Assembly: GCF_004358325.1 (NCBI RefSeq)
Contig: NZ_CP037940.1
Span: 1,550,001 to 1,614,000 of the forward strand
Length of the DNA: 64,000 nt
Direction: 5' to 3'
Source of the DNA: Periweissella cryptocerci
GTDB taxonomy: Bacteria > Bacillota > Bacilli > Lactobacillales > Lactobacillaceae
A model generated the notes under the pieces. The model made no database searches, was not told where the DNA came from, and saw nothing but the letters and a program-made list of their open reading frames with translations. Position numbers and translations under genes: made by a program. How positions within the stretch are numbered: position 1 is the first letter of the stretch; the number at the start of each line of letters is the position of its first letter. This document shows positions 1,320-59,062 of the stretch, in pieces.

Positions 1320-1923
1320 GGCTAAATTTTTTCTAACGTGGAATTTGGATACGTGTCTCAGATTGATTCCCACTACGAGGCTGGAACCAGTCTGGACACC
1401 GTGATGGAAGACAAGCATTTGAAGCCACAGTGCGGTCTTCAAATGTTTGCGAAGCTTGGTTCGCTAACGCGGCAACCATCTTCACAAATCCATAATCAGT
1501 AACGAAACCCGTTACTGATTATGCCATCACGGTGCGAGCTAAAGTCCAGCCTGGTTCCAGCCTCTTCGTTAGTTTGCGTAGATATTCTGACTAGTAATAT
1601 GCCGTAATCCTTGTCGCTGCAAGTTTAGCGGTAATCAATAGTTCAACGCTTATCTAGCGGAGTGACTGAAAATCACATTGTGGCCGCCAGGCTTTACACC
1701 GAAATGGGACGAACTTGACACCATGTGTCAGGTTTGTCGCTGAGGGTAGATGAGCAGTCTTTTGGCTTTAGCCATTAGACTGCCAGCTATCCCGAATTGC
1801 CCAAGACCGCCCTTTGGCTTGGGCATGTGCTTCCATTTCGGTGCACAATGTGATTTTCAGGCACGCAGTGGCATCATACATCTCATCACATTTTATAAAT
1901 TCCACGTCAGACGGAATAGAGCC
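1320..1923. mobile_element. 604-bp MITE-like element, copy A, with 8-bp target duplication CTAAAATC
   Basis: A 604-bp block is bounded by imperfect ~27-bp terminal inverted repeats. The left end starts GGCTAAATTTTTTCTAACGT; the right end, read inward, starts GGCTCTATTCCGTCTGACGT; both continue into GGAATTT, with 21 of 27 positions matching. Perfect direct repeats CTAAAATC lie immediately outside (1312-1319 and 1924-1931), the mark of transposition with an 8-bp target duplication. There is no transposase gene. Two foldable modules lie inside. Module 1 (1377-1564) has 14-bp outer arms, an inner CACCGTGATGG/CCATCACGGTG stem and a CATAATCAGTAACG hairpin. Module 2 (1662-1864) is closed by 21-nt arms. 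An almost identical element with a different target duplication lies at 10367-10970. Eight-bp duplications and GG-initial ends fit mobilisation by an ISL3-type transposase, which is inference. Confidence 0.88.
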
Positions 1924-10366: not shown

Positions 10367-10970
10367 GGCTAAAATTTTTCTAGCGTGGAATTTGGATATG
10401 TGTCTCAGATTGATTCCCACTACGTGTCTGGAAACAGTCAGGACACCGTGATGGAAGACAAGCATTTGAAGCCAAAGTGCGGTCTTCAAATGTTTGCGAA
10501 GCTTGGCTCGCTAACGCGGTAACCATCTTCACAAATCCATAATCAGTAACGAAACCCATTACTGATTATGCCATCACGGTGCGAGCTAAAGTCCAGCCTG
10601 TTTCCAGCCTCTTCGTTAGTTTGCGTAGATATTCTGACTAGTAATATGCCGTAATCCTTGTCGCTGCAAGTTTAGCGGTAATCAATAATTCCACGCTTAT
10701 CTAGCGGAGTGACTGAAAATCACCTTGTGGCCGGCAGGCTTTACACCGAAATGGGACGAACTTGACACCACGTGTCGAGTTTGTCGCTGAGGGTAGATGA
10801 GCAGTCTTTTGGCTTTAGCCATTAGACTGCCAGCTATCCCGAATTGCCCAAGACCGCCCTTTGGCTTGGGCATGTGCTTCCATCTCGGTGCACAATGTGA
10901 TTTTCAGTCACGCAGTGGCATCATACATCTCATCTCATTTTATAAATTCCACGTCAGACGGAATAGAGCC
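10367..10970. mobile_element. 604-bp MITE-like element, copy B, with 8-bp target duplication CTATATAA
   Basis: This has exactly the same length and nearly the same sequence as the element at 1320-1923, in the same orientation. It is flanked by a different perfect 8-bp direct repeat, CTATATAA (10359-10366 and 10971-10978). That shows independent insertion rather than segmental duplication. Module 1 arms CTGGAAACAG/CTGTTTCCAG (10428-10437 and 10598-10607) differ from copy A (GGAACCAG/CTGGTTCC) by a paired A-T for C-G exchange on both sides. Module 2 is closed by arms at 10709-10729 and 10891-10911 with one mismatch. It separates the small membrane gene from the rplI terminator. It contains no coding region I can support. 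Confidence 0.88.
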
Positions 10971-22046: not shown

Positions 22047-22148
22047 CGAAAAAAATAGCACCCCCACAAAAATTGTGAGCTGCTATTTCCAATATTAAAT
22101 TTTATTCACCGTCAGTCGCATCACTGTCAGTTGCAGTATCGGCGTCAT
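22047..22148. repeat. Duplicated gyrA 3' end and terminator, copy fused to the ABC ATPase gene
   Basis: These 102 bp align without net length change to 26102-26203, with about nine differences (about 91% identity). The segment covers the last ~16 codons of the gene ending at 22102, its stop codon and the downstream terminator. The equivalent segment in gyrA is the native 3' end. As a result the ABC ATPase ends ADTATDSDATDGE and GyrA ends [13 protein letters not shown]. Confidence 0.9.
22049..22087 (-). terminator. Intrinsic terminator of the ABC ATPase gene (copy of the gyrA terminator)
   Basis: On the minus strand, AAATAGCA...TGCTATTT with an inner CACAA/TTGTG pairing is followed by a T-tract. 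It is the duplicate of the gyrA terminator at 26104-26143. Confidence 0.8.
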
Positions 22149-26101: not shown

Positions 26102-26203
26102 CGAAAAAAATAGCACCCCACAAAAAATTGTGAGCTGCTATTTCCAATATTAAACTTTATTCACCATCAGTCGTATCACTGTCAGCTGCAGTATCGCCTT
26201 CAT
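26102..26203. repeat. Native gyrA 3' end and terminator, partner of the 102-bp direct repeat at 22047
   Basis: This is the same strand orientation as 22047-22148, about 91% identical over 102 bp, with a spacing of 4,055 bp. The two copies bracket the Rgg gene and the ABC membrane and ATPase genes. GyrA normally ends in an acidic tail like this one, so this copy is taken as the original. Confidence 0.9.
26104..26143 (-). terminator. Intrinsic terminator of gyrA
   Basis: On the minus strand, AAATAGCA and TGCTATTT with an inner CACAA/TTGTG stem are followed by seven T residues, starting 14 bp past the gyrA stop. Confidence 0.85.
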
Positions 26204-32667: not shown

Positions 32668-32878
32668 CGGAGTGTCTGGAAATTGCTTGGCGGGCGCAGC
32701 CTTTACACCGCAACTGGGGGCATATGTGTGCAACACATATTTCCGCTGAGGATAAGATGAGGAGTCTTTGGGATTTATCCCTTAGACTCCCAGCTTGTCC
32801 GAACCGACCAAGAACGCACTTTGGCTTGGGAGGCTGCTTCCAGCGAGGTGCGCCAAGCAATTTCCAGACACGCAGTGG
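32668..32878 (+). repeat. Stand-alone copy C of the foldable repeat module
   Basis: This is about 211 bp, closed by a perfect 21-bp inverted repeat (32672-32692 with 32851-32871; GTGTCTGG...CTTGGCG). Internal hairpins are ATATGTGT/ACACATAT and GGAGTCT...AGACTCC, capped by GGGATTTATCCC. It is homologous to module 2 of the 604-bp elements. Examples of shared segments are CTTTACACCG, TTAGACT, CCAGCTTG and CCAAGAACGC followed by CTTTGGCTTGGG. It lacks their outer ends and module 1. It lies between yaaA and the dnaN terminator, outside any gene. Confidence 0.85.
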
Positions 32879-32951: not shown

Positions 32952-34082
32952 TTAAAATGTCCGCACTGGTGTAATCAATTGGATGAAGCTTTCCTTGTTT
33001 TCAACCGGTGTCAAAATGAATGGACGCAATGATGTTGTGAAGCTAACTTCAATATCAATGTTCCCGAATGAACGCAACGCATCCTTCATGTAATCAGGGT
33101 TGAACGAAATTTCCAATGCATTACCATCGTAGTTTTTCACGTTCAAGGCTTCTTCAACTTGACCAACATCTGGTGAGTTACCAGTAATCTTTGAGCCAGT
33201 TTCACTGATTTCCAATTTAACCACGTTGTTGCGTGATTCGTGTGACAACAATGATGCCCGGTTAATTGCGGCTAATAATTCAGTCGCATTAAACGTTACT
33301 TGAATGTCACTTTCAGTTGGAATCAAGCGCGTCGTGTCAGGATAGTTTCCTTCCAACAAACGTGAGTAGAACAATGTTTTGCCCAAACTGAAGAGCACTT
33401 GATTTTCAGTTACTTGCATTTCAACAGTTTCAACGTTTTCGAGCATCTTGGCAAGTTCATTCAATGATTTACCAGGAATAATCAAATCGGCCTTATTTAC
33501 GTTCGCAGCATCAAGGGTCACACGGCGTTGTGATAAACGGTGTGAATCAGTTGCAACCGCTGCAAATTCGTTACCGTTAAAACTAAAGTGCACCCCTGTC
33601 AAAATTGGGCGACTTTCTTGGTTTGAAACCGCAATAACGGTTTGTGAAATAATTTGACGCAATGTATCAGCACTTAATGAAACTGAGTTAGTTGATTCAA
33701 TTTCTGGTAAGTGTGGGTACGTATTAGCATCCAAACCATTAATGGTAAATAACGCAGAACCTGATGTAATTGTTGTTTGGAAACCAGATGTGATTTCAAC
33801 GGTCATCGTTTGATCTGGCAATTGTTTAACAATTTCGCTAAAGAAACGTGCTGGCAAAACAATCGCGCCAGTATCTTCAATGTTTAACGAAGCTGTTTCG
33901 TCAGCAATGCTTAAGGTTGTTTCAATAGAGATATCTGAATCACTACCAGTTAACGTTAAACCATTCGCATCGGCGACTAATTTCAAACCTGTTAAAACAG
34001 GAATTGTCGTCCGTGCTGCAATTGCTCGAGAAACATCATTCAATTCTTTAATAAACGCTGTTCGATTTACTGTGAATTTCAT
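32952..34082 (-). CDS. dnaN: DNA polymerase III beta sliding clamp
   Basis: This is a 376-residue protein starting MKFTVNRTAFIKELNDVSRA. It forms the dimeric ring that tethers the polymerase. Features across its three clamp domains include ALFTINGLDANTYPHLPE, DSHRLSQRR and the terminal QLITPVRTF. It follows dnaA by 190 bp; that gap carries DnaA boxes. It ends at its own terminator, so yaaA starts from a separate promoter. Confidence 0.97.
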   Translation of the reverse strand: MKFTVNRTAFIKELNDVSRAIAARTTIPVLTGLKLVADANGLTLTGSDSDISIETTLSIADETASLNIEDTGAIVLPARFFSEIVKQLPDQTMTVEITSGFQTTITSGSALFTINGLDANTYPHLPEIESTNSVSLSADTLRQIISQTVIAVSNQESRPILTGVHFSFNGNEFAAVATDSHRLSQRRVTLDAANVNKADLIIPGKSLNELAKMLENVETVEMQVTENQVLFSLGKTLFYSRLLEGNYPDTTRLIPTESDIQVTFNATELLAAINRASLLSHESRNNVVKLEISETGSKITGNSPDVGQVEEALNVKNYDGNALEISFNPDYMKDALRSFGNIDIEVSFTTSLRPFILTPVENKESFIQLITPVRTF

Positions 34083-34272: not shown

Positions 34273-35625
34273 TTACTCACCATTAATTTGTTGTTTTAAA
34301 GTATTAATATTCTTTTGCAACGCTGAATCTTTTTCGATTTCCGTCGCAATTTTTTCCGTCGCATGCATAACAGTCGTGTGATCTTTACCGCCAAATTCAC
34401 GACCAATGTTTGGTAATGAGTTGTCAGTCATATCACGGGCCAAATACATCGCAATTTGTCGTGGCATCACGATTTCTTTGTTACGTTTCTTCCCTTTCAG
34501 GTCAACAATCGATAAACCATAGTACTTGGCAACCGTTTCTTGAATGAAAGCAATCGTAATTTCTGACTTACGGGCGATATCTAAGTCCGCCAAAATCTTC
34601 GTGGCATCATCAATCGTCACCCCAGCGTTGCCGGCAAATTTTGCGATTACGGAAACGCGCTTGAAGACCCCTTCGAGTTCACGCACGTTACTATCAACTT
34701 GTTTGGCGATGTATTCAATGACATTGCGATCAACATCGATGTGTTCTTTTTCAGCTTTTTCAAGCAGAATCGCGATCCGCGTTTCAAAGTCAGGCTTATT
34801 GATGTCAACCGACAAACCCCATTGGAACCGTGATACTAAGCGATCTTGTAAATCGGGGATGTCTTTTGGCAGACGATCAGAAGTCATCACGATACGACCA
34901 TTGTGGCCTAAAATATCATTGAAAGTGTGGAAAAATTCTTCTTGAGTTGATTCCTTACCTGATAAGAACTGCACGTCATCGACTAAAAGTAAGTCGGCGC
35001 TGCGGTATTCATCGCGCAGCTTTTCAGTCGTCCCATTCCGCACAGCACTAATGAAATCATTGGTGAACTGTTCGGAAGTGACATATAAAACTTTTTGGTT
35101 TGGATTTTCTTTTAGAGCATTATTACCAGTGGCTTGCATTAAGTGGGTTTTACCCAGTCCAACGCCTCCATATATTAATAGAGGATTGTATTCGAGGGAG
35201 CCTTCGGACACAGCTAAGGCAGCCCCATGTGCAAGTTTGTTTGTTGCGCCAACGACGAAAGTATCAAAAATATACTTGGGGTCCAGGTTGTTACCATGCT
35301 TCAACACTTGCTTACGCGCGATTTCGGGGTTGTCAGTCTTATCAATTTCTTCAAATAAATCGACAACTGGTTCGACAATCCGAACTTCAATGTTAGAAAG
35401 CAACATCTGGTTTGTTTCAAACGCAAATGTCGTGAACTGTTGGGAATAGGTATTCAGCCAACGATCACGTGATAACTTATTTGGAACTTCAATCACAGCA
35501 GTGTGTCCATTCTCGTCAAAATTGGCGAGACGAGCGGGCTGGATGAATGTTTCATATGATGGACGCTCCAAGGTTTGCTCGAAGCGGTCAGCGATTACTG
35601 ACCATAATTTGTTCCGTTCAACCAT
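34273..35625 (-). CDS. dnaA: Chromosomal replication initiator protein DnaA
   Basis: This is a 450-residue AAA+ ATPase that binds DnaA boxes and opens the origin. Domain I starts MVERNKLWSVIADRFEQTLE. The AAA+ core has Walker A GGVGLGKTHLMQA, Walker B LLLVDDVQFL and sensor motifs (LVSRFQWGLSVDI). Domain IV carries the DnaA signature GGKDHTTVMHA. The ATG at 35625 matches the family length and has GAAGG about 12 nt upstream; a longer frame to 35706 overlaps DnaA-box DNA and is rejected. Confidence 0.98.
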   Translation of the reverse strand: MVERNKLWSVIADRFEQTLERPSYETFIQPARLANFDENGHTAVIEVPNKLSRDRWLNTYSQQFTTFAFETNQMLLSNIEVRIVEPVVDLFEEIDKTDNPEIARKQVLKHGNNLDPKYIFDTFVVGATNKLAHGAALAVSEGSLEYNPLLIYGGVGLGKTHLMQATGNNALKENPNQKVLYVTSEQFTNDFISAVRNGTTEKLRDEYRSADLLLVDDVQFLSGKESTQEEFFHTFNDILGHNGRIVMTSDRLPKDIPDLQDRLVSRFQWGLSVDINKPDFETRIAILLEKAEKEHIDVDRNVIEYIAKQVDSNVRELEGVFKRVSVIAKFAGNAGVTIDDATKILADLDIARKSEITIAFIQETVAKYYGLSIVDLKGKKRNKEIVMPRQIAMYLARDMTDNSLPNIGREFGGKDHTTVMHATEKIATEIEKDSALQKNINTLKQQINGE

Positions 35626-36050
35626 AATAATTGCTAAACCTTCTTTAAATAAAATTAACTTTATCAAGAATAACAGGAAATGAAGAATATTTCCAGAGTT
35701 TTCCACAGGTGTGGATAAATTAATATCTATTGTTCACAGCACGGTGTGTTGTTTTTCCACAAGGTTGTGGAAAAAGGTGGGGAAAACTATTGGATTTAGG
35801 CTTATCCACTGTTTTTTGTGCGTTATCGCTACTAGAGCCACAAGCTTTACAAGAGTTATCCACTTTATCCACAGGGTAGTGTTAATAACTGTGCACAGCT
35901 TGTGTATTTTGGGATAACTTGTTGAAAACACGGGAATAACTCTAGTTTGGAAAAGTCGCAATTCACAGGCCTGTTGATAACGGAACGTTACATTGGGGAC
36001 AAAAACTGCTATACTTTTGGATGCAAAGAAAATTTAATTGATAAAGATAG
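35626..36050. other. oriC part 2: DnaA-box region upstream of dnaA
   Basis: Perfect boxes lie at 35710-35718 (TGTGGATAA) and 35865-35873 (TTATCCACA). Single-mismatch boxes lie at 35699-35707, 35802-35810 and 35856-35864. Further partial boxes (TTGTGGAAA) are near 35764. The DNA is AT-rich and gene-free, between divergent dnaA and rpmH. It should contain the dnaA promoter and the site of initial unwinding, though I cannot point to the exact unwinding element. Confidence 0.88.
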
Positions 36051-47873: not shown

Positions 47874-47918
47874 CGTATACTGCCCTGTGTTGGAAACGGG
47901 TTGGTATACGTTTTTTTT
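47874..47918 (+). terminator. Intrinsic terminator of the DHA2 exporter gene
   Basis: CGTATAC and GTATACG, with an inner GCCC/GGGT-type pairing, are followed by eight T residues, 15 bp after the stop. Confidence 0.85.
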
Positions 47919-47920
47919 GC

Positions 47921-48112
47921 GCTATTCCGTCTGATGTGGAATTGAATAAAATTGGCCACTCCGTTAGTTAGTGATAATTCTCAAACTATCGAAAAACAGT
48001 TATCAACCATAGGCCGCAGTTGCATGAAAAAAACTGAGAACCAATAGAACCGTAGTAATTCGATAATTGAAAAGTACAGAAACGACAATTCCACGTCAGA
48101 ATAAATAAATTT
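47921..48112. repeat. Deletion derivative of the MITE-like element
   Basis: The left end, GCTATTCCGTCTGATGTGGA continuing ATTG, matches the inward-read right end of the 604-bp elements with two or three changes. The right end has AATTCCACGTCAGA (48087-48100) in inverted orientation. Next to the left end, CCACTCCGTTAGT is the complement of the ACTAACGGAGTG edge of the foldable module. Most of the interior is unrelated or lost. No target duplication is recognisable. Confidence 0.6.
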
Positions 48113-49095: not shown

Positions 49096-49269
49096 CCACT
49101 GCGTGCCTGGAAATTGTTTGGCGCACCACGCTGGAAGCAGCCTCCCAAGCCAAAATACGGTCTTGGTCGGTTCGGATAAGCTGGGACTCTAAGGAAATAT
49201 ATGCTGCACACATATTTCCTTAGTCGCGGTGTAAAGGCTACGCCCGCTAAACAATTTCCAGGCACTCCG
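49096..49269 (-). repeat. Stand-alone copy D of the foldable repeat module
   Basis: This is homologous to 32668-32878 but in the opposite orientation. The closing arms are 49103-49123 and 49245-49265, pairing at 20 of 21 positions with one G-U. One internal hairpin is replaced by a perfect 12-bp CTAAGGAAATAT/ATATTTCCTTAG stem, and the 5' hairpin of other copies is missing. It lies between the jag terminator and a second terminator. Confidence 0.82.
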
Positions 49270-49316
49270 TTCGTTCGCAGCAAGGTGAACCACAAAAAAC
49301 GTAAAAGTCAAAAAGG

Positions 49317-49692: not shown

Positions 49693-52600
49693 ATGAAACA
49701 TAATAGTCAACGAAGTAAAAGTTTGACAATGCTTAGTGTCTTAATGACCAGCTTGGCATTGCAAGCGGTCGGCCCAATTTATAGCGCAGTTGATGCATCA
49801 ACGGGAAAAGATGCACGGACTGAAAGCGTTGCTGATCAGATGAGTAAAGGATTGCGGCAACACGACCAAGCAACCAAAGCGTTAGCGCAAAAGTCATGGT
49901 ACAACGGCGTTAAAGAACAATTAAAAGCGCAAGGTGTCGATGTCGCCAAGCTTGATAGTGACGCAGTTAAAAATCAAACGGTTAAAGTAATTGTGCAATT
50001 GAGTGCTAAACCAGCCGTTGATAAAACCGCTAAGCCAACTGGCTCGGTGGCATCAGTTAAAAAAATTACGGCGGCCGAAGACGATGTTGTCGATGGACAA
50101 AGCTCAGTGCTTAAGCAGGTCGAAAAAATCACTGGTACCAAGGCTTCAAGTCAATTTGGTTACCTCCTGAATGGTTTTGCAATTAAAGCTAAGGTTAGCC
50201 AGTTAGACCAATTAGAAGGCTTGAAGGGTGTCGCGAGCGTTGCTCCAACGGCTTCTTATCATTTATTAGAAGCCTCTTCAAACCAACAAGCCAAAGTTCA
50301 AACGGCGGTCCAAAATTTCAATAATCAAAACTACAATCTTGATGGTCGCGGGACGGTCATCGGAATTATTGACTCAGGGGTTGATCCTTCACATAAAGAC
50401 TTGAAGTTGAGTCCCGAAGGTGTGAAAGCCGAAAAAATCACGAAATCGGTCGCCCAAGAAAAGATTAAAGCGCTTGGTCACGGGGAATGGTATTCAGATA
50501 AAGTACCGTATGCTTACAACTACATGGAAGCTGATAGTGGTCAAGACACCAAATTTGATAACAGTAAAGCTGCTGGCGGTGGTAACTCAGCCGACAATGA
50601 TAAGGACAATCAAGATACTTCAAACGCAGTCCGTGATACTGGGCAAACGATGCACGGGATGCACGTTTCTGGGATTGCCGCTGCTAACGGAGACATTGCG
50701 GCTGATGACACAAAAACTGTTACCGCAGTCAAAGGGGTGGCACCAGAAGCTCAAATTTTAGATTTGAAAGTTTTTGCTAATTCTGAAGGTGGTAATGGGA
50801 ATAATGACACCGATGCAATTGTGCAATCAATTGAAGATGCAGTGACCCTTGGTGCGGATGTGATTAACATGTCACTTGGCCGTAATGGTGGTGCGGATGG
50901 TGAAGGCTTGAGTTCATTAGATGTACAAGCCGTTAACGCCGCTGCGGAAGCCGGGACGTTGCCAGTTATCTCAGCGGGTAACTCTGGGGTTAGTAACTCG
51001 GGTGCATACGGATCACCGGCTTCTGTCCAATGGGCGCAGCAAGATAACGGTATTGTCGGTGACCCAGGGGTTGCTAACAACGCCTTAACGGTTGCTTCAG
51101 CGGAAAACACGATGCTTGTGACTGACGTAATGGATTTCAGTCGCGATGGTGAAGAAAATCCGTTTGCAAATGAAGTTGTGGCTAGTGTTGCGCACTTGCA
51201 ATTTGGTGCGTTCCCAAGTAAAAAGCAAATTGTGGTGTTGCCTAACAAACACGGAGCAAAAGTTCCCGATAATACACCAGAATTAGTGGGACTGGGATAC
51301 CCAGATGATTATGATGGCCTCGATGTTAAGGGCAAAATTGTCTTATTAGCCCGGGGGGAATTAAATTTCTCAACGAAGCAACAAACGGCCCTTGATAAAG
51401 GAGCCGCCGGTTTCATCATCATGAATAATGTCCCTGGGACGTCATTTAATGGGAATATTGATAACTCAGCTGATATTCCATCAGTTGGGTTATCATACGA
51501 AGATGGGGTAGCTTTGAAGAAAGAAGTTGAAGCTGGTGGTAAGAAGGACACTTACTCATTTTCAGCACCATTTAAAAAGCGGGTTACAAACCCAGCTGGT
51601 GGCACGCCATCAGACTTTACTTCATGGGGCCCATCACCAACATTACAATTGAAGCCCGAAATTTCTGGTCCTGGTGGTCACATTTGGTCATTGGCAAATG
51701 ATGACAAGTATCAAAATATGTCGGGAACTTCAATGTCATCACCATTCGTTGCTGGTTCCGAAGCGTTGATTTTAGAAGCAATGCATGAACGGGGCACGAC
51801 TTTGAAGGGTGGCGATTTAACTGCGGCGGCGAAGTTAGCGGCGATTAATACTTCAGAACCAATGGTAGATAAAGCCGGGGTACCATATTCACCACGGCGC
51901 CAAGGTTCAGGGATGATTAACGTCAACCGCGCGATTTCAACCGATGTGCAATTAACATACGATGGTGATAACACTGGCGTGGTTTCATTGAAAGAAATCG
52001 ATAAAAAGACGACGTTCTCAGTAACATTGAAAAATAACGGTAAACAAGCAGTTAGCTACAAGTTAAACGGTGACTATAAGCCAGAAGCGCAATATTTACG
52101 TGCAGGTAACGGTGGCCAAGAACAATATGCGAAGTACCTTGATGGCGCGAAGCTAACGGCAACTGCCAATAAGTTCACAGTCGCACCTGGTGACAGTAAA
52201 AAAGTTACGTTTACGTTGGATCTTAGTGATGCACAAAATGGTAAATTTGATCTTGATCAATTCGTTGAAGGCTACATTGGATTTGACGCCCTTGATGCAG
52301 ATGGTAATGTTGTGACACCGCGCGCTGATGATAACAGCGACAAGGAACCAACCGCCTTCGCCAACGGGGTTAACTTGACGATTCCATACCTTGGTTTCTA
52401 CGGTAACTGGGGTGGCCTTGATGCATTAGATGCACCCGCATTTGATGGTGACAAATCACATTATCAAGAAAACTACCTGCGTGATGGTTACAGTCAAGCA
52501 CCACTTGGGTTGGACGTACCAGTTTCAGCATTAACTGAATTAGAACAAAATTCAGCAATTTCACAAGCTGATGAACCAGCATTCATCAATCCAAATCACG

Positions 52601-55515
52601 TGGCTATTTCGCCCGATGGTGATGGCTATCAAGATTCCGCAGTGGCCTTTCTTGCTTACTTGCGTAATGTTAAAGCAACGGATGTCACGATTGAAGATGC
52701 GAAGGGTAACACCGTCCGTGACTTGAAGAAACTTGGTGGCTGGAGTCGCGCCTACATTAATGAAGTTGGTCAAGCGACAATCTATCAAGACCAACAATTG
52801 ATTTGGGATGGTAAAGTTTCAAACTCATCATGGTCAACGACCGCAACGGATGCACCCGATGGGCAATACTACTACACGATTAAATCAACGCCATACGGGA
52901 AGAATGCTAAGCCACAAACCTTGAAACTACCAGTTAAGGTTGATACAACAGCACCAACTGTGACAAATGTTGATTTAAAACAAGAAAATGGCGCTTGGCA
53001 TGTAACTGGTCACGTTGCTGATAATGTTTCTGGTTTTGAAAGTTTCACGAATGTTGCGGTGGCAATTAATAACGTCATTGAATATTACCAAGCAACTGAT
53101 AACACAGGTAAGCACTTCTTAGGACTCGGCGATGAAGATAAGGGTAACCAAAAATCAGTTGAGGATAATGGGGACTTTGACTTCGCCGTAACTGCCGAAC
53201 AAGCCCGCGCGATTACAAACGGAACTAATGACGTGCAAGGTCAAGTTGAAGATATTGCGGGTAACATCGGGACGTACCACACCCGCGTTGCTGGTAGTGA
53301 AGATATTTTCAATACCGCTAATGACATCTTGCTCTACAACGTCACGAACAACCAAATCGCGACGGATGCTGATGCATACTATGATGCCAAAACGAAAACT
53401 TACACGGTTTACGGTTACTCACCACAAGACTTGTACTTGACGACTAACGATGCCGCAGCCGGTGCAAAAGTTGCCGCTAAAATCAACAAGTACGGTGAAT
53501 TTACTGCGAAAGTACCCGTAACTGACAAAACGCGGAAGCTGATTTTCAAGTTAGATGATGCACGGACGTTAAAAACGACGAACTTCTCATTTAGCACAAG
53601 CCCAACTGTTCAAATTGATAAGAAGGATGGCGCGTTAACTGATAACGGCGCCGGAACTTCATACTATTTGGTTAATCACCCATTGGCAGCTGGTAACCAA
53701 TACACATTCTCAGGTTCGTTATCAAAGGATGCTGATGGGATTGCCTACAATGCCATCAGTTACGATGAAGACGACAATATGAACCAAAATGGTGAAGAAG
53801 TCGATGAACCATATAAGGGTGCTAACACTGACGCAACTGAAAGTGTCGTCTACTCACAATATGGATTAGAACTACACGATGATGGGCGTTGGAATTTAGC
53901 GGCCAAACTGGCTGAAGGCCAAAATATCTTGTATGCTTCGGCGTACAAGTTCACTGGTCAAACGAACCAAGATAAGATTTATGGACCAATGGACTACTTG
54001 TTTGTGAACCAGCCAGCTTCAACGTACTTGAACTTTAAAAATGTCGTTGATTTTGATTACACGCGAATTGATGCCTCAAAGAAAGATTATGACGCCAAGA
54101 CTGGTATTTACACGGTTAAGGGTGAATGGGATCCAGCAACGAAGGTAAACGTACAAATCAATGTTAATGGGCAAGTTGATAAAGATGGCAAGACTGATTG
54201 GCAAGATGTGACCAAGCAAGATGACGGCACGTTCACTTTCCCAGTTAAGGTGGGCGACAACTCAAGCAAACGGGTGCACTACCGTTGGACGGCCGAAGTA
54301 AACGGCAAAACAATCGGGGACGAGGGTTACTTTGTTCTCTATACCGATGCATTGTCACCATATTTGAAGTTAGACGGTAACTACGCGAAGTCTTCTGATC
54401 CAGATTATGATTATGAAGTTTGGACCAACAAGAAAGACTTCACGATTTCAGGTGAAGCCAACGATAACATGGCAGGCTATGACATCAACATTAATGCTGA
54501 TGATGTGGCACAAGACAAACGAGCTTTGGATCAAACGTATGAACACAAGAATGTTGAACCTAACTTGAAGTTCTCAAAGACTTACGAATTGTTCAAAACG
54601 CCGTACGGTAAGGATGATGTGTATGATCACATTTTCCAAGTGGGTGTTTATGACATTCACCAAAACGGTACCAAAGCAAAAATCTTGGTCCACTACGCAC
54701 CCGATAAGAAGGTTGCCCGGCCAACGGTTAAGGCAGATACAACTAAACCAGCAAAAGCGGTTAAGTTGTCAGTTGTTAGCAACGAAAAAGACGTGACGAA
54801 CTACTACAGTTTGGATAGTGGTAAGACTTGGAACCAATACAACGATGCCATCAACATTGCGTTTAACTCAACGCCAGAATTCAAATCAGTTGATAAGTAC
54901 GGTAACGAGTCAGCCGTGGTTAAGCATGCGGTAACAAATGCGGTTTATAAAGTTGCAGCCGATGCAACCGTTAAATTAGGCCAACTCGATAAGAAAAAGG
55001 GTCAATTGACAGTTACGCTAGGCTACACGCAAGCGTTGACGGCCAGCGAAAAGACTTACACGTACTTGGAATACTCAACTAATAAGGGTAAGAGCTGGAA
55101 GAAATATACGTCAGCTGTAACCTTTAAGAAGACGACTAACTTACAAGTGCGGACCGCTGATTCACTTGGTCATAAAGGACAAGTGAAGACCGCCACGGTT
55201 ACTGTGCCAACTGTTAAAGCAATTAAGAAAGCAACTAAAGCAAAGAAAGTTTCCAAGAAATCAAGTTTGAAGGTTGCAAAAGTTAAGACAAAGGCCAAGA
55301 AAGTAACTGGTAAAGCAGCGAAGAAGTCCGTTGTGACAGTCTACAATGCTAAGGGCAAGAAGCTCGGAACTGCTAAGGCCAACGCCAAGGGTAAGTTCAC
55401 AGTGAAATTGAAGAAGGCTTTGAAGAAGAACCAAAAGATTAAGGTTAAAGCAGATCGACCAGATACAACCAAGATTATTTACAAAGCTGTAACCAAGACT
55501 GTTAAAGCAAAATAA
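49693..55515 (+). CDS. Cell-envelope S8 (subtilisin-like) serine protease, lactocepin type
   Basis: This is a 1,940-residue secreted protease. A signal peptide occupies residues about 10-35, then a propeptide to ~195. The S8 catalytic domain has Asp227 (IIDSGVDPSHKD), His321 (MHGMHVSGIAA, with Met as in lactococcal PrtP), oxyanion Asn429 (SAGNSG) and Ser679 (GTSMSSPFVAG). A PA insert lies at about 520-620. Fn3-like and Ig-like beta domains follow. Residues about 1840-1940 form a Lys-rich Ig-like module (VVTVYNAKGKKLGTAKANAK). There is no LPXTG; attachment is presumably through the cationic end. Lactocepins digest casein and other proteins to feed amino-acid needs and can degrade host proteins. 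It is the first of three large secreted-protein genes. Confidence 0.92.
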   Translation: MKHNSQRSKSLTMLSVLMTSLALQAVGPIYSAVDASTGKDARTESVADQMSKGLRQHDQATKALAQKSWYNGVKEQLKAQGVDVAKLDSDAVKNQTVKVIVQLSAKPAVDKTAKPTGSVASVKKITAAEDDVVDGQSSVLKQVEKITGTKASSQFGYLLNGFAIKAKVSQLDQLEGLKGVASVAPTASYHLLEASSNQQAKVQTAVQNFNNQNYNLDGRGTVIGIIDSGVDPSHKDLKLSPEGVKAEKITKSVAQEKIKALGHGEWYSDKVPYAYNYMEADSGQDTKFDNSKAAGGGNSADNDKDNQDTSNAVRDTGQTMHGMHVSGIAAANGDIAADDTKTVTAVKGVAPEAQILDLKVFANSEGGNGNNDTDAIVQSIEDAVTLGADVINMSLGRNGGADGEGLSSLDVQAVNAAAEAGTLPVISAGNSGVSNSGAYGSPASVQWAQQDNGIVGDPGVANNALTVASAENTMLVTDVMDFSRDGEENPFANEVVASVAHLQFGAFPSKKQIVVLPNKHGAKVPDNTPELVGLGYPDDYDGLDVKGKIVLLARGELNFSTKQQTALDKGAAGFIIMNNVPGTSFNGNIDNSADIPSVGLSYEDGVALKKEVEAGGKKDTYSFSAPFKKRVTNPAGGTPSDFTSWGPSPTLQLKPEISGPGGHIWSLANDDKYQNMSGTSMSSPFVAGSEALILEAMHERGTTLKGGDLTAAAKLAAINTSEPMVDKAGVPYSPRRQGSGMINVNRAISTDVQLTYDGDNTGVVSLKEIDKKTTFSVTLKNNGKQAVSYKLNGDYKPEAQYLRAGNGGQEQYAKYLDGAKLTATANKFTVAPGDSKKVTFTLDLSDAQNGKFDLDQFVEGYIGFDALDADGNVVTPRADDNSDKEPTAFANGVNLTIPYLGFYGNWGGLDALDAPAFDGDKSHYQENYLRDGYSQAPLGLDVPVSALTELEQNSAISQADEPAFINPNHVAISPDGDGYQDSAVAFLAYLRNVKATDVTIEDAKGNTVRDLKKLGGWSRAYINEVGQATIYQDQQLIWDGKVSNSSWSTTATDAPDGQYYYTIKSTPYGKNAKPQTLKLPVKVDTTAPTVTNVDLKQENGAWHVTGHVADNVSGFESFTNVAVAINNVIEYYQATDNTGKHFLGLGDEDKGNQKSVEDNGDFDFAVTAEQARAITNGTNDVQGQVEDIAGNIGTYHTRVAGSEDIFNTANDILLYNVTNNQIATDADAYYDAKTKTYTVYGYSPQDLYLTTNDAAAGAKVAAKINKYGEFTAKVPVTDKTRKLIFKLDDARTLKTTNFSFSTSPTVQIDKKDGALTDNGAGTSYYLVNHPLAAGNQYTFSGSLSKDADGIAYNAISYDEDDNMNQNGEEVDEPYKGANTDATESVVYSQYGLELHDDGRWNLAAKLAEGQNILYASAYKFTGQTNQDKIYGPMDYLFVNQPASTYLNFKNVVDFDYTRIDASKKDYDAKTGIYTVKGEWDPATKVNVQINVNGQVDKDGKTDWQDVTKQDDGTFTFPVKVGDNSSKRVHYRWTAEVNGKTIGDEGYFVLYTDALSPYLKLDGNYAKSSDPDYDYEVWTNKKDFTISGEANDNMAGYDININADDVAQDKRALDQTYEHKNVEPNLKFSKTYELFKTPYGKDDVYDHIFQVGVYDIHQNGTKAKILVHYAPDKKVARPTVKADTTKPAKAVKLSVVSNEKDVTNYYSLDSGKTWNQYNDAINIAFNSTPEFKSVDKYGNESAVVKHAVTNAVYKVAADATVKLGQLDKKKGQLTVTLGYTQALTASEKTYTYLEYSTNKGKSWKKYTSAVTFKKTTNLQVRTADSLGHKGQVKTATVTVPTVKAIKKATKAKKVSKKSSLKVAKVKTKAKKVTGKAAKKSVVTVYNAKGKKLGTAKANAKGKFTVKLKKALKKNQKIKVKADRPDTTKIIYKAVTKTVKAK

Positions 55516-55627
55516 GCTACAAAAATCAAACGCGTAATGAACATAAGCTAATGAAGATTAGTGAGTGATTTATTGTTGGACACAGGGATTTGTCCAATGA
55601 AATGGCGGTTATAGGGAGGCCACATTT

Positions 55628-58600
55628 ATGAAGAAACACAAAAACTTGAAGACCGTTTTATATAGTTCATTAGTACTTGGTGCGGTAGTTGTAGCTTTTA
55701 ATGCAAATACAGCCGGTGCTAGTGCAGCGACTAATAGTAATCAACAACGTTGGGGGCAAGCGCAGTTATTCGACGCGGCAGCCGCAACGGACACACCCGC
55801 CAAAGAAGTCGCAGCCGTATTTGCGACAGATGGCGATGCTACCACCTACCAAACGAGTGATACAGCGGTTAATAGCGCAACGGTTGATCAGTTGACCGCC
55901 GCAGTTAAAGCTGCCTCAGATGCTAATGATTCAGATGGTGCTACCAAGGCTTTAAAGGATTTGGATGCGTACTATTTGGCAGTCGGTGATAATGCGCTCG
56001 ATGCCCAAGGGACGATTCCCATTGATGAAGCGCACTTTCCGGATTCAATTTTCCGGGCCTTTGTGGCAACAATCGCCCAACAAGCAACTGGTAAGGATGT
56101 CAAAGTCTTAACACCAGATACGTTGAAGATGTTTGGGCAATTAGATTTGACGAATTTGCATTTTGATAATCTAACCGGTATTCAATATTTCAAAGCCATC
56201 CAAAAATTAACGTTGAACGGTAACAATGTTGGAGATTTATCAATTTTGAAAGATAACCCAATTTTGGGTGAATTGTACGCTCACGACATGGGTCCCGAGT
56301 TAGCAACGGCGGATGTCAGTGAATTACCAATTTTGTACAAAGCACAATTTGGTTCACTTGGAGCGACAAGTATCAGTGATGATGCTGACAACATTGATTT
56401 AAAAGCTGAAGATGTGACGGTTACCCGTGATCAAAACTTAAAGAAAATTGTTACTAATTCAACACTTGATGAATTGGGCGTTGTATTTTCCGATAGCTTG
56501 ACCACGATTGACACATCACAAAGTAGCCACTTAACAACGCTGCAGTTATCGCATAATGGTGGTTTGAAAAATCTAGATGTGACGAAAAATCCTGAATTAC
56601 AATTATTGACGATTCGTGATTCAAGCGCCATTGAAAAGTTGGATTTGAGTAACAATACTAGTTTGACAAACTTAACCATCGCAATGACGCCACCAGATAG
56701 TGCTGACAAAAACAGCCAAGTGACTTTAAAAGACGTTACTTTACCAGATGCGAAGAAGCTTTCATTGTTAGATTTGGAAAATCTGAGTATCACGGCTGAT
56801 CAGTTAGCCAAAGGTTTAGAAACGTATACCGAGTTGGATAGTTTAGTATTGCAAAATACTGGTTTGAAAACCGTTGATTTATCAAATAATCCTGGTTTGA
56901 CAGTCGCCGTGTTAGCTAATAATCAGTTGACTGACATTGCTGGTTTGGCTAAGTTACAAAACCTCGATAGTTTGTTTGTTGGTAGTAATCAATTAACTAG
57001 CTTAGATTTATCGAAGAATCCACGGGTAGCACGCGTTAATGCCGCGGATAACCAACTTAAGACGTTAAAGGTTGCCCCACAATCAACAGCAAATGGTGGG
57101 CAAAAGATTTCATATTTAGATGTCCGGAATAATAAATTAGATGAAGCGAGTTTCAATAGTACGTTAGCGCAATTATCGGGCTTAACGACACTGTTGGCAT
57201 CAGATAATAATTTAACGCACGTCGACTTAGCTAAAAATATTTATCTAAGTAATATTGATTTATCAAACAACCACCTGCGGACATTAGATATGAGTACGAA
57301 CGTTTCTAATAACCGGAGTGGTGCGAATATTTCGGGCCAAACGGTCGCAGACCAAGCATTCTACGCACAAAAAGATGCGCAAGGCGCCACGAAATACTAT
57401 TTCAACTTGAAGCAGTTTTTGAATGAAGCTTCAACCGAAGATTTAGCACAATACGCAACGGTCCCAGCGCAAATTGATTGGAAATTAGACCCAACAACTG
57501 GGGTGGCGGTATATCAAGGTACCGGGCAACCAACGGATATTGAATATACGTACAACGTTGGTGCAATGCTAACAATGCCCGTTCACGTTGATTTACAAGC
57601 TGATCCAACCGTGGCAGCCTACCATGTTGACTTTGCGGCAACTGATAGTAAAACCACGGTTACTGCCAAAACAGTTGACCTCTCATCAACTGATGATGGT
57701 GTCTTGACCGCTGACCAAGTGCCAGCCTACAAAGTCAATGATGCCAACTATCACTTTGTTGGTTGGGAAGATGCGACCGGGCAAGCCATTAAGCTTAATC
57801 AAGCCGGCCAAATTATTGGTAGCAAAACATTGTACGCAGTGGTTGCACCGAACGCTTACACGATTTCATTTGACACTGCTGGTGGCACTAAATTAGCTGA
57901 CACACAGGCGAAAACGGCAAGTGGCTCAAAAACTAGCACGTATACATTACCAGCCGGACCAACAAAAGCGGACTTCAGTTTTACTGGTTGGGAAGATGAT
58001 CGGGGCAATACCTACAAAGCTGGTGATACCGTTAAGTTAACGGCGGATACTAAGTTTACTGCACAATACCAAGCTAATGGTGCGACTGCCGTTAAGCTGG
58101 CAGTGGCGGTGACAAGTAACAAGGCAACGGATACGGGAGCAACCTTAACTGGTACGGCAACAGCCGGCGCAAGTTTAGCGGTTGTTGATCAATATGGTGT
58201 CACAGTTGCGACTGGTACGGCTGACAGCAAGGGTGCGTTTACCTTAACTGCTAAAGGCGTAGTTGCTGGTGATACTTTGACCGTAACTGCTACCAAGACT
58301 GCGACGGCCACGCAAACTTACACTACCGCGACGGCCAACAAAGTGGTTGCTGCTGAGCAGGTGGCAGTGAGTGTACCAAAGACAACTCCTAAGACCCCAG
58401 CGCCAGCTAAGAAGAAAGTTGCAACTAGCTTGAAACTTGATAAAGCTTACACCGCTAACAAGTATGTCACTGGTAAAACTGAAGCAAAAGCGCAAGTTAC
58501 GGTGACAACTAAGGCTGGTAAAGTTCTTGGCAAGGTTAAGGCAGCAACGAACGGTAAATTCAAAGTTAAGTTGAAAACTACTAAGGCACAGACGGTCTAT

Positions 58601-58927
58601 GTCAGTGTTAAAGCAATTGACACTAAAACTACAACAAAAAACACGACTAAAAAGGCACTTAAAGTTACAAAGAGCCCTGCGCCTAAGCGAAGTACACTCA
58701 AAGTTACTAAAAAGACCTTTACAGGTAAGACAACCCAAGGCGCAACTGTTAAGTTATACAACGCCAAAGGAAAGGTCGTTGCACAGAAACACGTAACGAC
58801 GAAAAACGGTAAATTCTCAATTAAGTTGAAGCAAACTTATAAGAAGGGTACTAAGTTCACCGTTAAAGTTCAAAATGATCACGCACATGGCTTTGCCAAA
58901 GCTCAAACGAGTTTTAAAGCTAAGTAA
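55628..58927 (+). CDS. Secreted leucine-rich-repeat protein with InlB-type repeats and cationic Ig-like tail
   Basis: This is a 1,099-residue protein. A signal peptide (residues 1-33, LVLGAVVVAFNANTAGASA) is followed by a helical region and then about a dozen leucine-rich repeats over residues ~170-560 (for example LTLNGNNVGDLSILKDNPIL and ADNQLKTLKVAPQS). Two InlB-type beta-grasp repeats come next (HFVGWEDATGQAI, FSFTGWEDDRGNTY) and then an Ig-like domain. Two Lys-rich modules end it, the last reading VKLYNAKGKVVAQKHVTTK. There is no LPXTG. LRR/InlB architecture suggests adhesion to host or other surfaces. The gap to the protease gene (112 bp) holds a TTGGACA/TGTCCAA hairpin but no clear terminator. 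Confidence 0.88.
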   Translation: MKKHKNLKTVLYSSLVLGAVVVAFNANTAGASAATNSNQQRWGQAQLFDAAAATDTPAKEVAAVFATDGDATTYQTSDTAVNSATVDQLTAAVKAASDANDSDGATKALKDLDAYYLAVGDNALDAQGTIPIDEAHFPDSIFRAFVATIAQQATGKDVKVLTPDTLKMFGQLDLTNLHFDNLTGIQYFKAIQKLTLNGNNVGDLSILKDNPILGELYAHDMGPELATADVSELPILYKAQFGSLGATSISDDADNIDLKAEDVTVTRDQNLKKIVTNSTLDELGVVFSDSLTTIDTSQSSHLTTLQLSHNGGLKNLDVTKNPELQLLTIRDSSAIEKLDLSNNTSLTNLTIAMTPPDSADKNSQVTLKDVTLPDAKKLSLLDLENLSITADQLAKGLETYTELDSLVLQNTGLKTVDLSNNPGLTVAVLANNQLTDIAGLAKLQNLDSLFVGSNQLTSLDLSKNPRVARVNAADNQLKTLKVAPQSTANGGQKISYLDVRNNKLDEASFNSTLAQLSGLTTLLASDNNLTHVDLAKNIYLSNIDLSNNHLRTLDMSTNVSNNRSGANISGQTVADQAFYAQKDAQGATKYYFNLKQFLNEASTEDLAQYATVPAQIDWKLDPTTGVAVYQGTGQPTDIEYTYNVGAMLTMPVHVDLQADPTVAAYHVDFAATDSKTTVTAKTVDLSSTDDGVLTADQVPAYKVNDANYHFVGWEDATGQAIKLNQAGQIIGSKTLYAVVAPNAYTISFDTAGGTKLADTQAKTASGSKTSTYTLPAGPTKADFSFTGWEDDRGNTYKAGDTVKLTADTKFTAQYQANGATAVKLAVAVTSNKATDTGATLTGTATAGASLAVVDQYGVTVATGTADSKGAFTLTAKGVVAGDTLTVTATKTATATQTYTTATANKVVAAEQVAVSVPKTTPKTPAPAKKKVATSLKLDKAYTANKYVTGKTEAKAQVTVTTKAGKVLGKVKAATNGKFKVKLKTTKAQTVYVSVKAIDTKTTTKNTTKKALKVTKSPAPKRSTLKVTKKTFTGKTTQGATVKLYNAKGKVVAQKHVTTKNGKFSIKLKQTYKKGTKFTVKVQNDHAHGFAKAQTSFKAK

Positions 58928-58941
58928 TTAATGTGATGTCG

Positions 58942-58997
58942 AAAAAACGACCTAACAATGCCTTTTGCAGGGGCTTTTGTGAGGTCGTTTTTTTCAA
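58942..58997 (+). terminator. Intrinsic terminator after the LRR protein gene
   Basis: AAAACGACCT and AGGTCGTTTT form a 10-bp stem with an internal CCTTTTGCAGGGG region, followed by a T-run. Confidence 0.8.
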
Positions 58998-59062
58998 TAA
59001 TAATTTATTTGCTGGATAGACATCACGAAAAAACAAACGAGTTCAGGGGAGGGGTTTTATTT

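What the first reader, a model, noticed from the sequence alone, without database searches (positions are those of the whole stretch)
32668..32878. Four-copy foldable module whose 21-nt closing arms co-vary
The module occurs inside both 604-bp elements (1662-1864, 10709-10911) and alone at 32668-32878 and 49096-49269. Its arm sequence differs strongly between copies (ACTGAAAATCACATTGTG type versus TCTGGAAATTGCTTGGCG type), yet in every copy both arms changed together and still pair at 20 or 21 of 21 positions. Inner hairpins also change in pairs (CAGTCT/AGACTG versus GGAGTCT/AGACTCC). That is the signature of selection for structure in RNA or single-stranded DNA, as with a structured non-coding RNA or a hairpin-transposed element.
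Basis: seen in the sequence. Interest (0 to 1): 0.82.

Follow-up and report, generated by a model that had tools for sequence, protein, structure and literature searches.

The report
Abundant folded paired repeats in lactobacilli
The window holds a few of several hundred copies of an apparently undescribed, strongly folded DNA/RNA element that is scattered through many lactobacilli genomes, often as back-to-back pairs, and whose stems keep pairing although their letters change freely.

Summary
In detail: the closing arms pair at 20, 20, 21 and 20 of 21 positions in the four window copies. It is no four-copy curiosity: a covariance model finds 51 distinct places in 464 kb of this genome (about 340 genome-wide, scaled from 45 in 400 kb outside the window). 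On 36 copies 93.3% of cells pair and 41 of 74 pairs change on both sides; 0 of 500 shuffles reach this. The 604-bp elements are two modules, one inverted, inside a miniature transposon with ends of an ISL3-family IS and perfect 8-bp target duplications in 12 of 15 testable cases. Relatives occur in 91 of 301 Lactobacillaceae genomes, 14 of 40 genera; outside the family only two weak matches. In 69 loci of other species 49 of 54 close neighbours are divergent pairs. No Rfam family matches; eight paper searches aimed at a description found none. Copies without recognisable ends are more diverged yet better paired in the closing stem (small numbers). Best reading: a Lactobacillaceae family of paired structured elements, probably RNA, that travels in borrowed miniature transposons; its molecular job is unknown. 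Y1/RAYT hairpin transposition is not supported.

The parts
1320..1923 (+). 604-bp miniature transposon: ISL3-type ends, inverted C module, linker, B module
   Evidence: Perfect 8-bp target duplication CTAAAATC at 1312-1319 and 1924-1931 (positions read); right end equals that following full-length ISL3-family genes
1370..1570 (-). C-type module, inverted (left half of the 604-bp element)
   Evidence: nhmmer; covariance model R1 94.7 bits, E 1.2e-22, no C sequence in the model
1656..1871 (+). B-type module; arms 20/21 paired
   Evidence: R1 195.7 bits; fold z -10.0
10367..10970 (+). second 604-bp miniature transposon
   Evidence: perfect 8-bp target duplication CTATATAA
10417..10617 (-). C-type module, inverted
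   Evidence: R1 85.9 bits, E 2.4e-20
10703..10918 (+). B-type module; arms 20/21 paired
   Evidence: R1 191.9 bits
32666..32878 (+). A-type module without recognisable transposon ends, downstream of dnaN; arms 32672-32692 and 32851-32871, 21/21 paired
   Evidence: R1 229.7 bits; dnaN by Pfam
32810..32828 (+). P5 hairpin tip of this copy; matches the family-wide AAGACCGnnCTTTGGCTT except one base
   Evidence: sequence; motif conservation
49096..49273 (-). A-type module without transposon ends and with an internal deletion of the P4 5' strand; arms 20/21 paired
   Evidence: R1 149.2 bits over 49096-49271
47918..48112 (-). module-less relative: both A-element ends, no module
   Evidence: G000:1597918-1598112; no target duplication

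Best explanation
The module is the unit of a large, apparently undescribed, Lactobacillaceae-wide family of structured elements of about 140-215 nt. Shown: one strand folds into a closing stem (P1) with hypervariable but paired arms, an inner stem (P2), two variable hairpins (P3, P4) and one hairpin (P5) with an almost invariant tip; modules often sit as divergent pairs with their 5' ends facing; in this genome A and B modules ride in miniature transposons with ISL3-type ends and 8-bp target duplications. Supported by few cases: copies stay at orthologous sites and keep the fold by compensated changes. Inferred: the fold acts as RNA made from the strand as written, and a host-coded partner recognises the P5 tip while the variable stems only present it; spread is passive, on whatever DDE transposase recognises the surrounding ends; the fold is then kept because it does something at its site (for example shields or processes transcripts near gene ends). 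The molecular effect is not shown.
For: Covariation: 93.3% of 2587 cells paired, 41 of 74 pairs two-sided, 268 such cells against 87 in shuffles, 0/500; 60 copies from other species at 46% mean column identity, 21 of 26 predicted pairs with a two-sided change, all nine invariant columns in the P5 tip. Strand: P1 G-U 153 against A-C 46 over 212 copies. Blind finds: C modules by a model without them; this genome's modules by a model built only from other genera (27 matches in 244 kb, best E 4.8e-7). Spread: 91/301 genomes, 14/40 genera. Pairs: 49 of 54 neighbours within 700 nt divergent, none convergent; L. brevis 20 of 21. Mobility: perfect duplications 12/15 (B) and 8/20 (A), controls 0/315 and 0/420; an L. 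songbeiensis pair against an empty site in L. dongliensis with a 9-bp duplication. Retention: 8 copies without ends differ from the A consensus at 24.1 positions but have 0.1 broken P1 pairs, against 15.2 and 1.0 in 9 copies with duplications. One orthologous pair (L179_1467/L181_2092, 27 differences): 6-7 pairs changed on both sides and kept, none changed on both sides and lost.
Against: No promoter-like enrichment upstream of modules and no T-run seen after the module ends printed, so no sign of an independent transcript. P5 shows no G-U excess (10 to 10, 27 to 20, and 3 to 16 in this genome's own copies). Related copies inherit changes together, so the shuffle counts overstate independence. 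Only three orthologous pairs were found; two show no compensation (L136/L138 identical; L137/L141 six differences, 1-2 pairs lost), so compensation in place rests on one locus. The retention contrast uses groups picked by hand (8, 9 and 33 copies; two of the 9 have 7/8 duplications, and the 33 'others' include copies lacking one end); over all stems the groups hardly differ (2.6, 3.4 and 2.7 broken pairs of 74). Copy 4 of the window has lost part of its inner fold. No expression data.
Confidence: 0.5

Rival explanations
1. The fold acts as single-stranded DNA, for example on the lagging-strand template, as a replication-coupled mobility or processing site; the RNA is irrelevant.
For: One-strand mispair asymmetry also fits ssDNA. 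In this genome B elements point against the leading strand in 29 of 30 cases, including 8 of 8 whose neighbouring genes are not both antisense; A elements with ends 31 to 6; 256 of 344 long ORFs lie on the leading strand (origin set by dnaA/dnaN; terminus assumed opposite).
Against: Mobile copies carry 8-bp duplications of a double-stranded DDE transposon; no Y1 transposase match in this genome; A copies without a found right end show no clear bias (11 to 8); divergent pairs put one module on each strand; the element bias may belong to the ISL3 transposase or to gene orientation.
Confidence: 0.2
2. The arms pair only because template switching during replication or gene conversion keeps correcting palindromes; no selection on structure.
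For: Every stem is a local inverted repeat, the kind of sequence such correction acts on; 20-21/21 perfect arms.
Against: Correction predicts no difference between G-U and A-C mispairs, but P1 shows 153 to 46; the P5 tip is conserved across genera where stems are not.
Confidence: 0.14
3. A giant REPIN-like selfish element: two inverted folded units moved by a dedicated enzyme not yet identified, with the fold as recognition site.
For: Paired inverted units, hundreds of copies; in the L. brevis sample 0 of 42 loci inside ORFs and few between divergent genes (2 of 37 placed against 43 of 228 control gaps).
Against: Different outer ends in different genera (ISL3 type here; ACGCTTGGTGCTAGTTG type in L. 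songbeiensis); no Y1 match here; a reverse transcriptase in only 3 of 6 module-bearing genomes tested; copies without ends keep paired arms.
Confidence: 0.16

Closest known systems
REPINs / REP doublets (BIMEs) with RAYT transposases (PMC3116915, PMC8049555: search listing only; PMC3733652: listing and passages)
   Same: Dispersed intergenic repeats in high copy, two folded units in inverted orientation, persistence within genomes
   Different: Units here are about 140-215 nt multi-stem folds instead of 20-40 bp palindromes; no Y1 match in this genome; outer ends of DDE type with 8-bp duplications
ISL3-family miniature inverted-repeat transposons (MITEs)
   Same: Shared terminal repeats with full-length ISL3-family copies and 8-bp target duplications
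   Different: They carry conserved structured modules found in other genera under other ends; modules also stand without recognisable ends
Streptococcal BOX elements (recalled, no paper read, not compared)
   Same: Modular, foldable intergenic repeats in Lactobacillales
   Different: No comparison was run; copy structure differs as far as recalled
Ornate structured RNAs (GOLLD, ROOL; PMC12286853: search listing only)
   Same: Structured, covarying bacterial RNAs of unclear role
   Different: No Rfam match over a module; here far smaller (size of those recalled) and dispersed in hundreds of copies

Membership tests
ISL3-type MITE (outer element in this genome) | Terminal repeats shared with a full-length ISL3 IS | tested here: met
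   Right-end pattern 166 hits with up to 3 mismatches, 0 in the reversed control; zero-mismatch hits at 1048392, 312733 and 1508995 lie just after PF01610 genes
ISL3-type MITE (outer element in this genome) | 8-bp target duplication | tested here: met
   12 of 15 B and 8 of 20 A elements with both ends found; 14 of 29 B and 34 of 54 A had no findable pair of ends and were not counted
ISL3-type MITE (outer element in this genome) | All copies are bounded by those ends | tested here: not met
   Window copies 32666 and 49096 and others show none
REPIN/RAYT | Two inverted folded units | tested here: met
REPIN/RAYT | Y1 tyrosine transposase in the genome | tested here: not met
   PF01797: 0 matches in this genome, 4 candidates scored; not tested in the other carriers
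REPIN/RAYT | Units of 20-40 bp | tested here: not met
   Intact modules here 198-216 nt apart from three with inserts; relatives about 136-197 nt
Any Rfam 15 RNA family | Score over the family's gathering cut-off over a module | tested here: not met
   Window: 0; lenient scans of two window stretches and 17 relatives' loci gave no match over a module reaching a cut-off
Structured non-coding RNA | Covariation beyond shuffles | tested here: met
   phylogeny not modelled
Structured non-coding RNA | Transcription | not testable with these tools
   No RNA-seq held; promoter scan showed no enrichment

The most novel reading that the evidence does not exclude
A family-wide class of 'paired ornate RNAs': divergent pairs of folded RNAs whose stems are free to change and whose single fixed hairpin tip is read by a host factor, dispersed by borrowed DNA transposases and then kept by selection where they land, so that mobile DNA seeds a genome with hundreds of equivalent RNA-binding platforms.
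Probability: 0.28. Interest if true: 0.92.

Novelty: new variant of a known kind. Interest (0 to 1): 0.78.

Why it matters
Widely used food and probiotic bacteria appear to carry hundreds of copies of a folded element absent from Rfam (3.5% of the 400 kb sampled from L. brevis, linkers included). It is a natural deep alignment of a fold with almost free stems, well suited to finding what binds the fixed tip, and a test case for whether transposons distribute host-useful RNA structures.

Tried and rejected
Rfam at curated and lenient thresholds: nothing over a module. Plasmid records: no match. Viral contigs: 21 motif hits; with nine unrelated genome loci, only one fragment at E 0.1. Modules flanking cargo genes: rejected, the eight genes between distant modules that got a Pfam name (of ten scanned) are ordinary. 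Two pairs that I first took for orthologues are not: L179_4576/L181_1588 and L165/L198, which on a second look is an element against an empty site; the compensated changes counted between them are therefore not used. Y1 transposase and reverse transcriptase as shared mobiliser: not supported. Promoters in the linker: no enrichment. Likeness to integron attC, retron RNA and group II introns was considered from memory only and not tested. No tool named the organism; one chromosome, five held species in the genus and four smaller congeners fit Periweissella cryptocerci, which stays a guess.

Papers: ten searches. Eight looked for a description of such an element (62 returned no paper, the others were seen as capped listings of 8-15 titles with abstract beginnings); two searches asked about the organism and about transposase-replication coupling. 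Passages only were read in PMC2267715, PMC10758620 and PMC3733652.

Full report
1. The observation. Two were folded and are far more stable than shuffled sequence. Copy 4 has lost the 5' strand of one inner hairpin.

2. Extent in this genome. The window lies at 1550001-1614000 of a 3.02-Mb single contig. DNA searches had 240 and 190 first-look candidates for the A and B types, of which 40 each were scored and matched. In 639 kb of held sequence profile searches gave 129 non-overlapping hits, fragments included. From these I extracted 82 intact modules; seven tries failed the tip test and hits under 195 nt, which include most interrupted B copies, were not tried. By simple motifs: A 50, B 14, C 14, D 4. 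The covariance model R1 gives 81 rows but 51 distinct places in the window plus 20 evenly spaced 20-kb stretches, the rest being opposite-strand shadows of the same palindromes; 45 lie in the 400 kb outside the window, about 340 per genome by scaling. Four congeners have none.

3. Anatomy. P1: closing stem of 21 pairs with free sequence. P2: CACCG...CGGTG-type stem. P3: a hairpin whose sequence and length differ between classes. P4: a two-part hairpin. P5: AAG-A-CC-GnnCTTT-GG-CTT. On 36 A, B and D copies picked for diversity (of 82), 93.3% of cells pair, 41 of 74 pairs have two-sided changes, 268 such cells against 87 in shuffles, 0 of 500 shuffles reaching any measure; sliding the partner by 1-3 columns drops pairing to 28.5-44.8%. 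The structure was drawn from one of these sequences, which favours the unslid version. C copies, left out of that model, are then found: both window copies at 1.2e-22 and 2.4e-20.

4. Which strand. Counting arms with a scoring that treats G-U and A-C alike: L. brevis 39 to 9, other species 46 to 27, this genome 68 to 10; together 153 to 46 over 212 copies (which drops L. brevis loci counted twice). The P5 hairpin shows no excess (10 to 10, 27 to 20, 3 to 16). So a one-strand constraint is supported for the closing stem only.

5. Mobility. B elements (597-745 bp) and A elements (358-638 bp by this test) have ends shared with full-length ISL3-family IS. Perfect 8-bp duplications flank 12 of 15 B and 8 of 20 A elements with both ends found; control windows 0 of 315 and 0 of 420. 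Seven elements with the A ends but no module were found, one with a perfect duplication, so modules are not needed for this mobility. B elements point against the leading strand in 29 of 30 cases, A with ends in 31 of 37, A without a found right end in 11 of 19, D in 2 of 4; 256 of 344 long ORFs lie on the leading strand. In L. songbeiensis the unit is [inverted module - linker - module] with other terminal repeats; L. dongliensis has the empty site of one such unit (L165 against L198), flanked in L. songbeiensis by a 9-bp repeat.

6. Copies without ends. Eight such A copies, picked by eye, are more diverged from the A consensus (24.1 differences; 15.2 in 9 copies with a 7/8 or 8/8 duplication; 16.4 in 33 others) yet have fewer broken P1 pairs (0.1; 1.0; 0.8) and more two-sided compensations (5.8; 2.1; 2.4). 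Over all 74 pairs the groups differ little (2.6, 3.4, 2.7 broken). The direction is what selection on the fold predicts, but the numbers are small.

7. Other genomes. R1 matched 22 of 301 Lactobacillaceae genomes. Over the 71 lactobacilli loci R1 gave 82 matches at E 0.01 and R2 172 at 1e-4; over the 9 unrelated and 21 viral loci only one fragment at E 0.1. A 60-sequence alignment (picked by hand from about 108 available; 46% mean column identity) has 21 of 26 predicted pairs with two-sided changes and nine invariant columns, all in the P5 tip. The resulting model R2 matches 91 of 301 family genomes in 14 of 40 genera at 1e-4 and this genome's modules, mostly over part of the model. In a 295-genome sample of the order the only matches outside the family are two at E 0.006 and 0.007, which may be chance.

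8. Pairs. Using the 161 R2 matches that I carried over, in 69 loci, 54 neighbours lie within 700 nt: 49 divergent, 4 and 1 same-strand, none convergent. In 400 kb of G233, whose contig length equals that of L. brevis CD0817, R2 gives 65 matches, about 480 per genome by scaling; of the 62 strongest, 21 neighbours lie within 700 nt, 20 divergent and one same-strand, and 22 modules are outside divergent pairs. Units and singles fill 3.5% of that sample, none of 42 loci lies inside an ORF, and 2 of 37 placed ones lie between divergent genes against 43 of 228 background gaps.

9. Orthologous copies. Three pairs pass. L179_1467/L181_2092: collinear through the module on one side and beyond the partner module on the other; 27 differences; folding each sequence alone, 6 or 7 pairs changed on both sides and kept, none changed on both sides and lost, 0 or 2 lost by one change. 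L136/L138: module identical while flanks are 92% alike. L137/L141: 6 differences, 1-2 pairs lost, none compensated.

10. Mechanism. Shown: fold, one-strand constraint on P1, fixed tip, pairing of modules, borrowed transposon ends. Inferred: RNA, tip-binding partner, benefit in place. Not shown: any transcript; promoters are not enriched upstream. I put structured RNA kept in place at 0.5, ssDNA at 0.2, REPIN-like selfish element at 0.16, palindrome correction at 0.14.

11. Novelty. No Rfam family over a module and no description in eight searches of an open-licence library, which lacks most subscription papers. As a kind it joins folded intergenic repeats and MITEs; size, paired layout, free stems with a fixed tip and spread over 14 genera set it apart.

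Noticed in passing
G000 (whole genome): This genome is 3.02 Mb against 1.8-2.0 Mb in its four congeners, none of which has the module.
   Followed up: no
L046-L060 and similar: 25 of the 40 B-type places scored match positions 1-153 apart from the rest, i.e. are interrupted near the P5 hairpin by about 100 nt; three (L043-L045) carry about 40 nt more near P4. The inserts are unexplained.
   Followed up: no
window 61121-61444: 36-nt tandem repeat inside the gene of a 921-aa protein with a Big_6 domain.
   Followed up: partly
window 49693-61723: Three large genes: a subtilase with PA and Fn3-like domains, and two surface-like proteins with Big_6 and other repeat domains.
   Followed up: no
window 34273-35706 and 32952-34082: dnaA and dnaN by Pfam: the replication origin probably lies in the window near 36 kb although the record starts elsewhere.
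   Followed up: yes
G000:C1:2865949-2866440 (L285): One reverse transcriptase match, absent from the four congeners.
   Followed up: no
window 22047-22148 and 26102-26203: 102-nt repeat, 91% identical, the second copy directly after an A-element left end.
   Followed up: partly
L013 / L038 (2816837-2817325) and L034 (1804105-1804689): A B and an A module about 60 bases apart in opposite orientation; elsewhere a B element sits in the arm of an A copy, a nested insertion.
   Followed up: partly
L179:1800-1976 against L181:1588-1767: At one orthologous pair locus the partner modules differ at 79 of 179 aligned positions while the other module differs at 27 of 184: one half of a pair may have been replaced.
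   Followed up: partly
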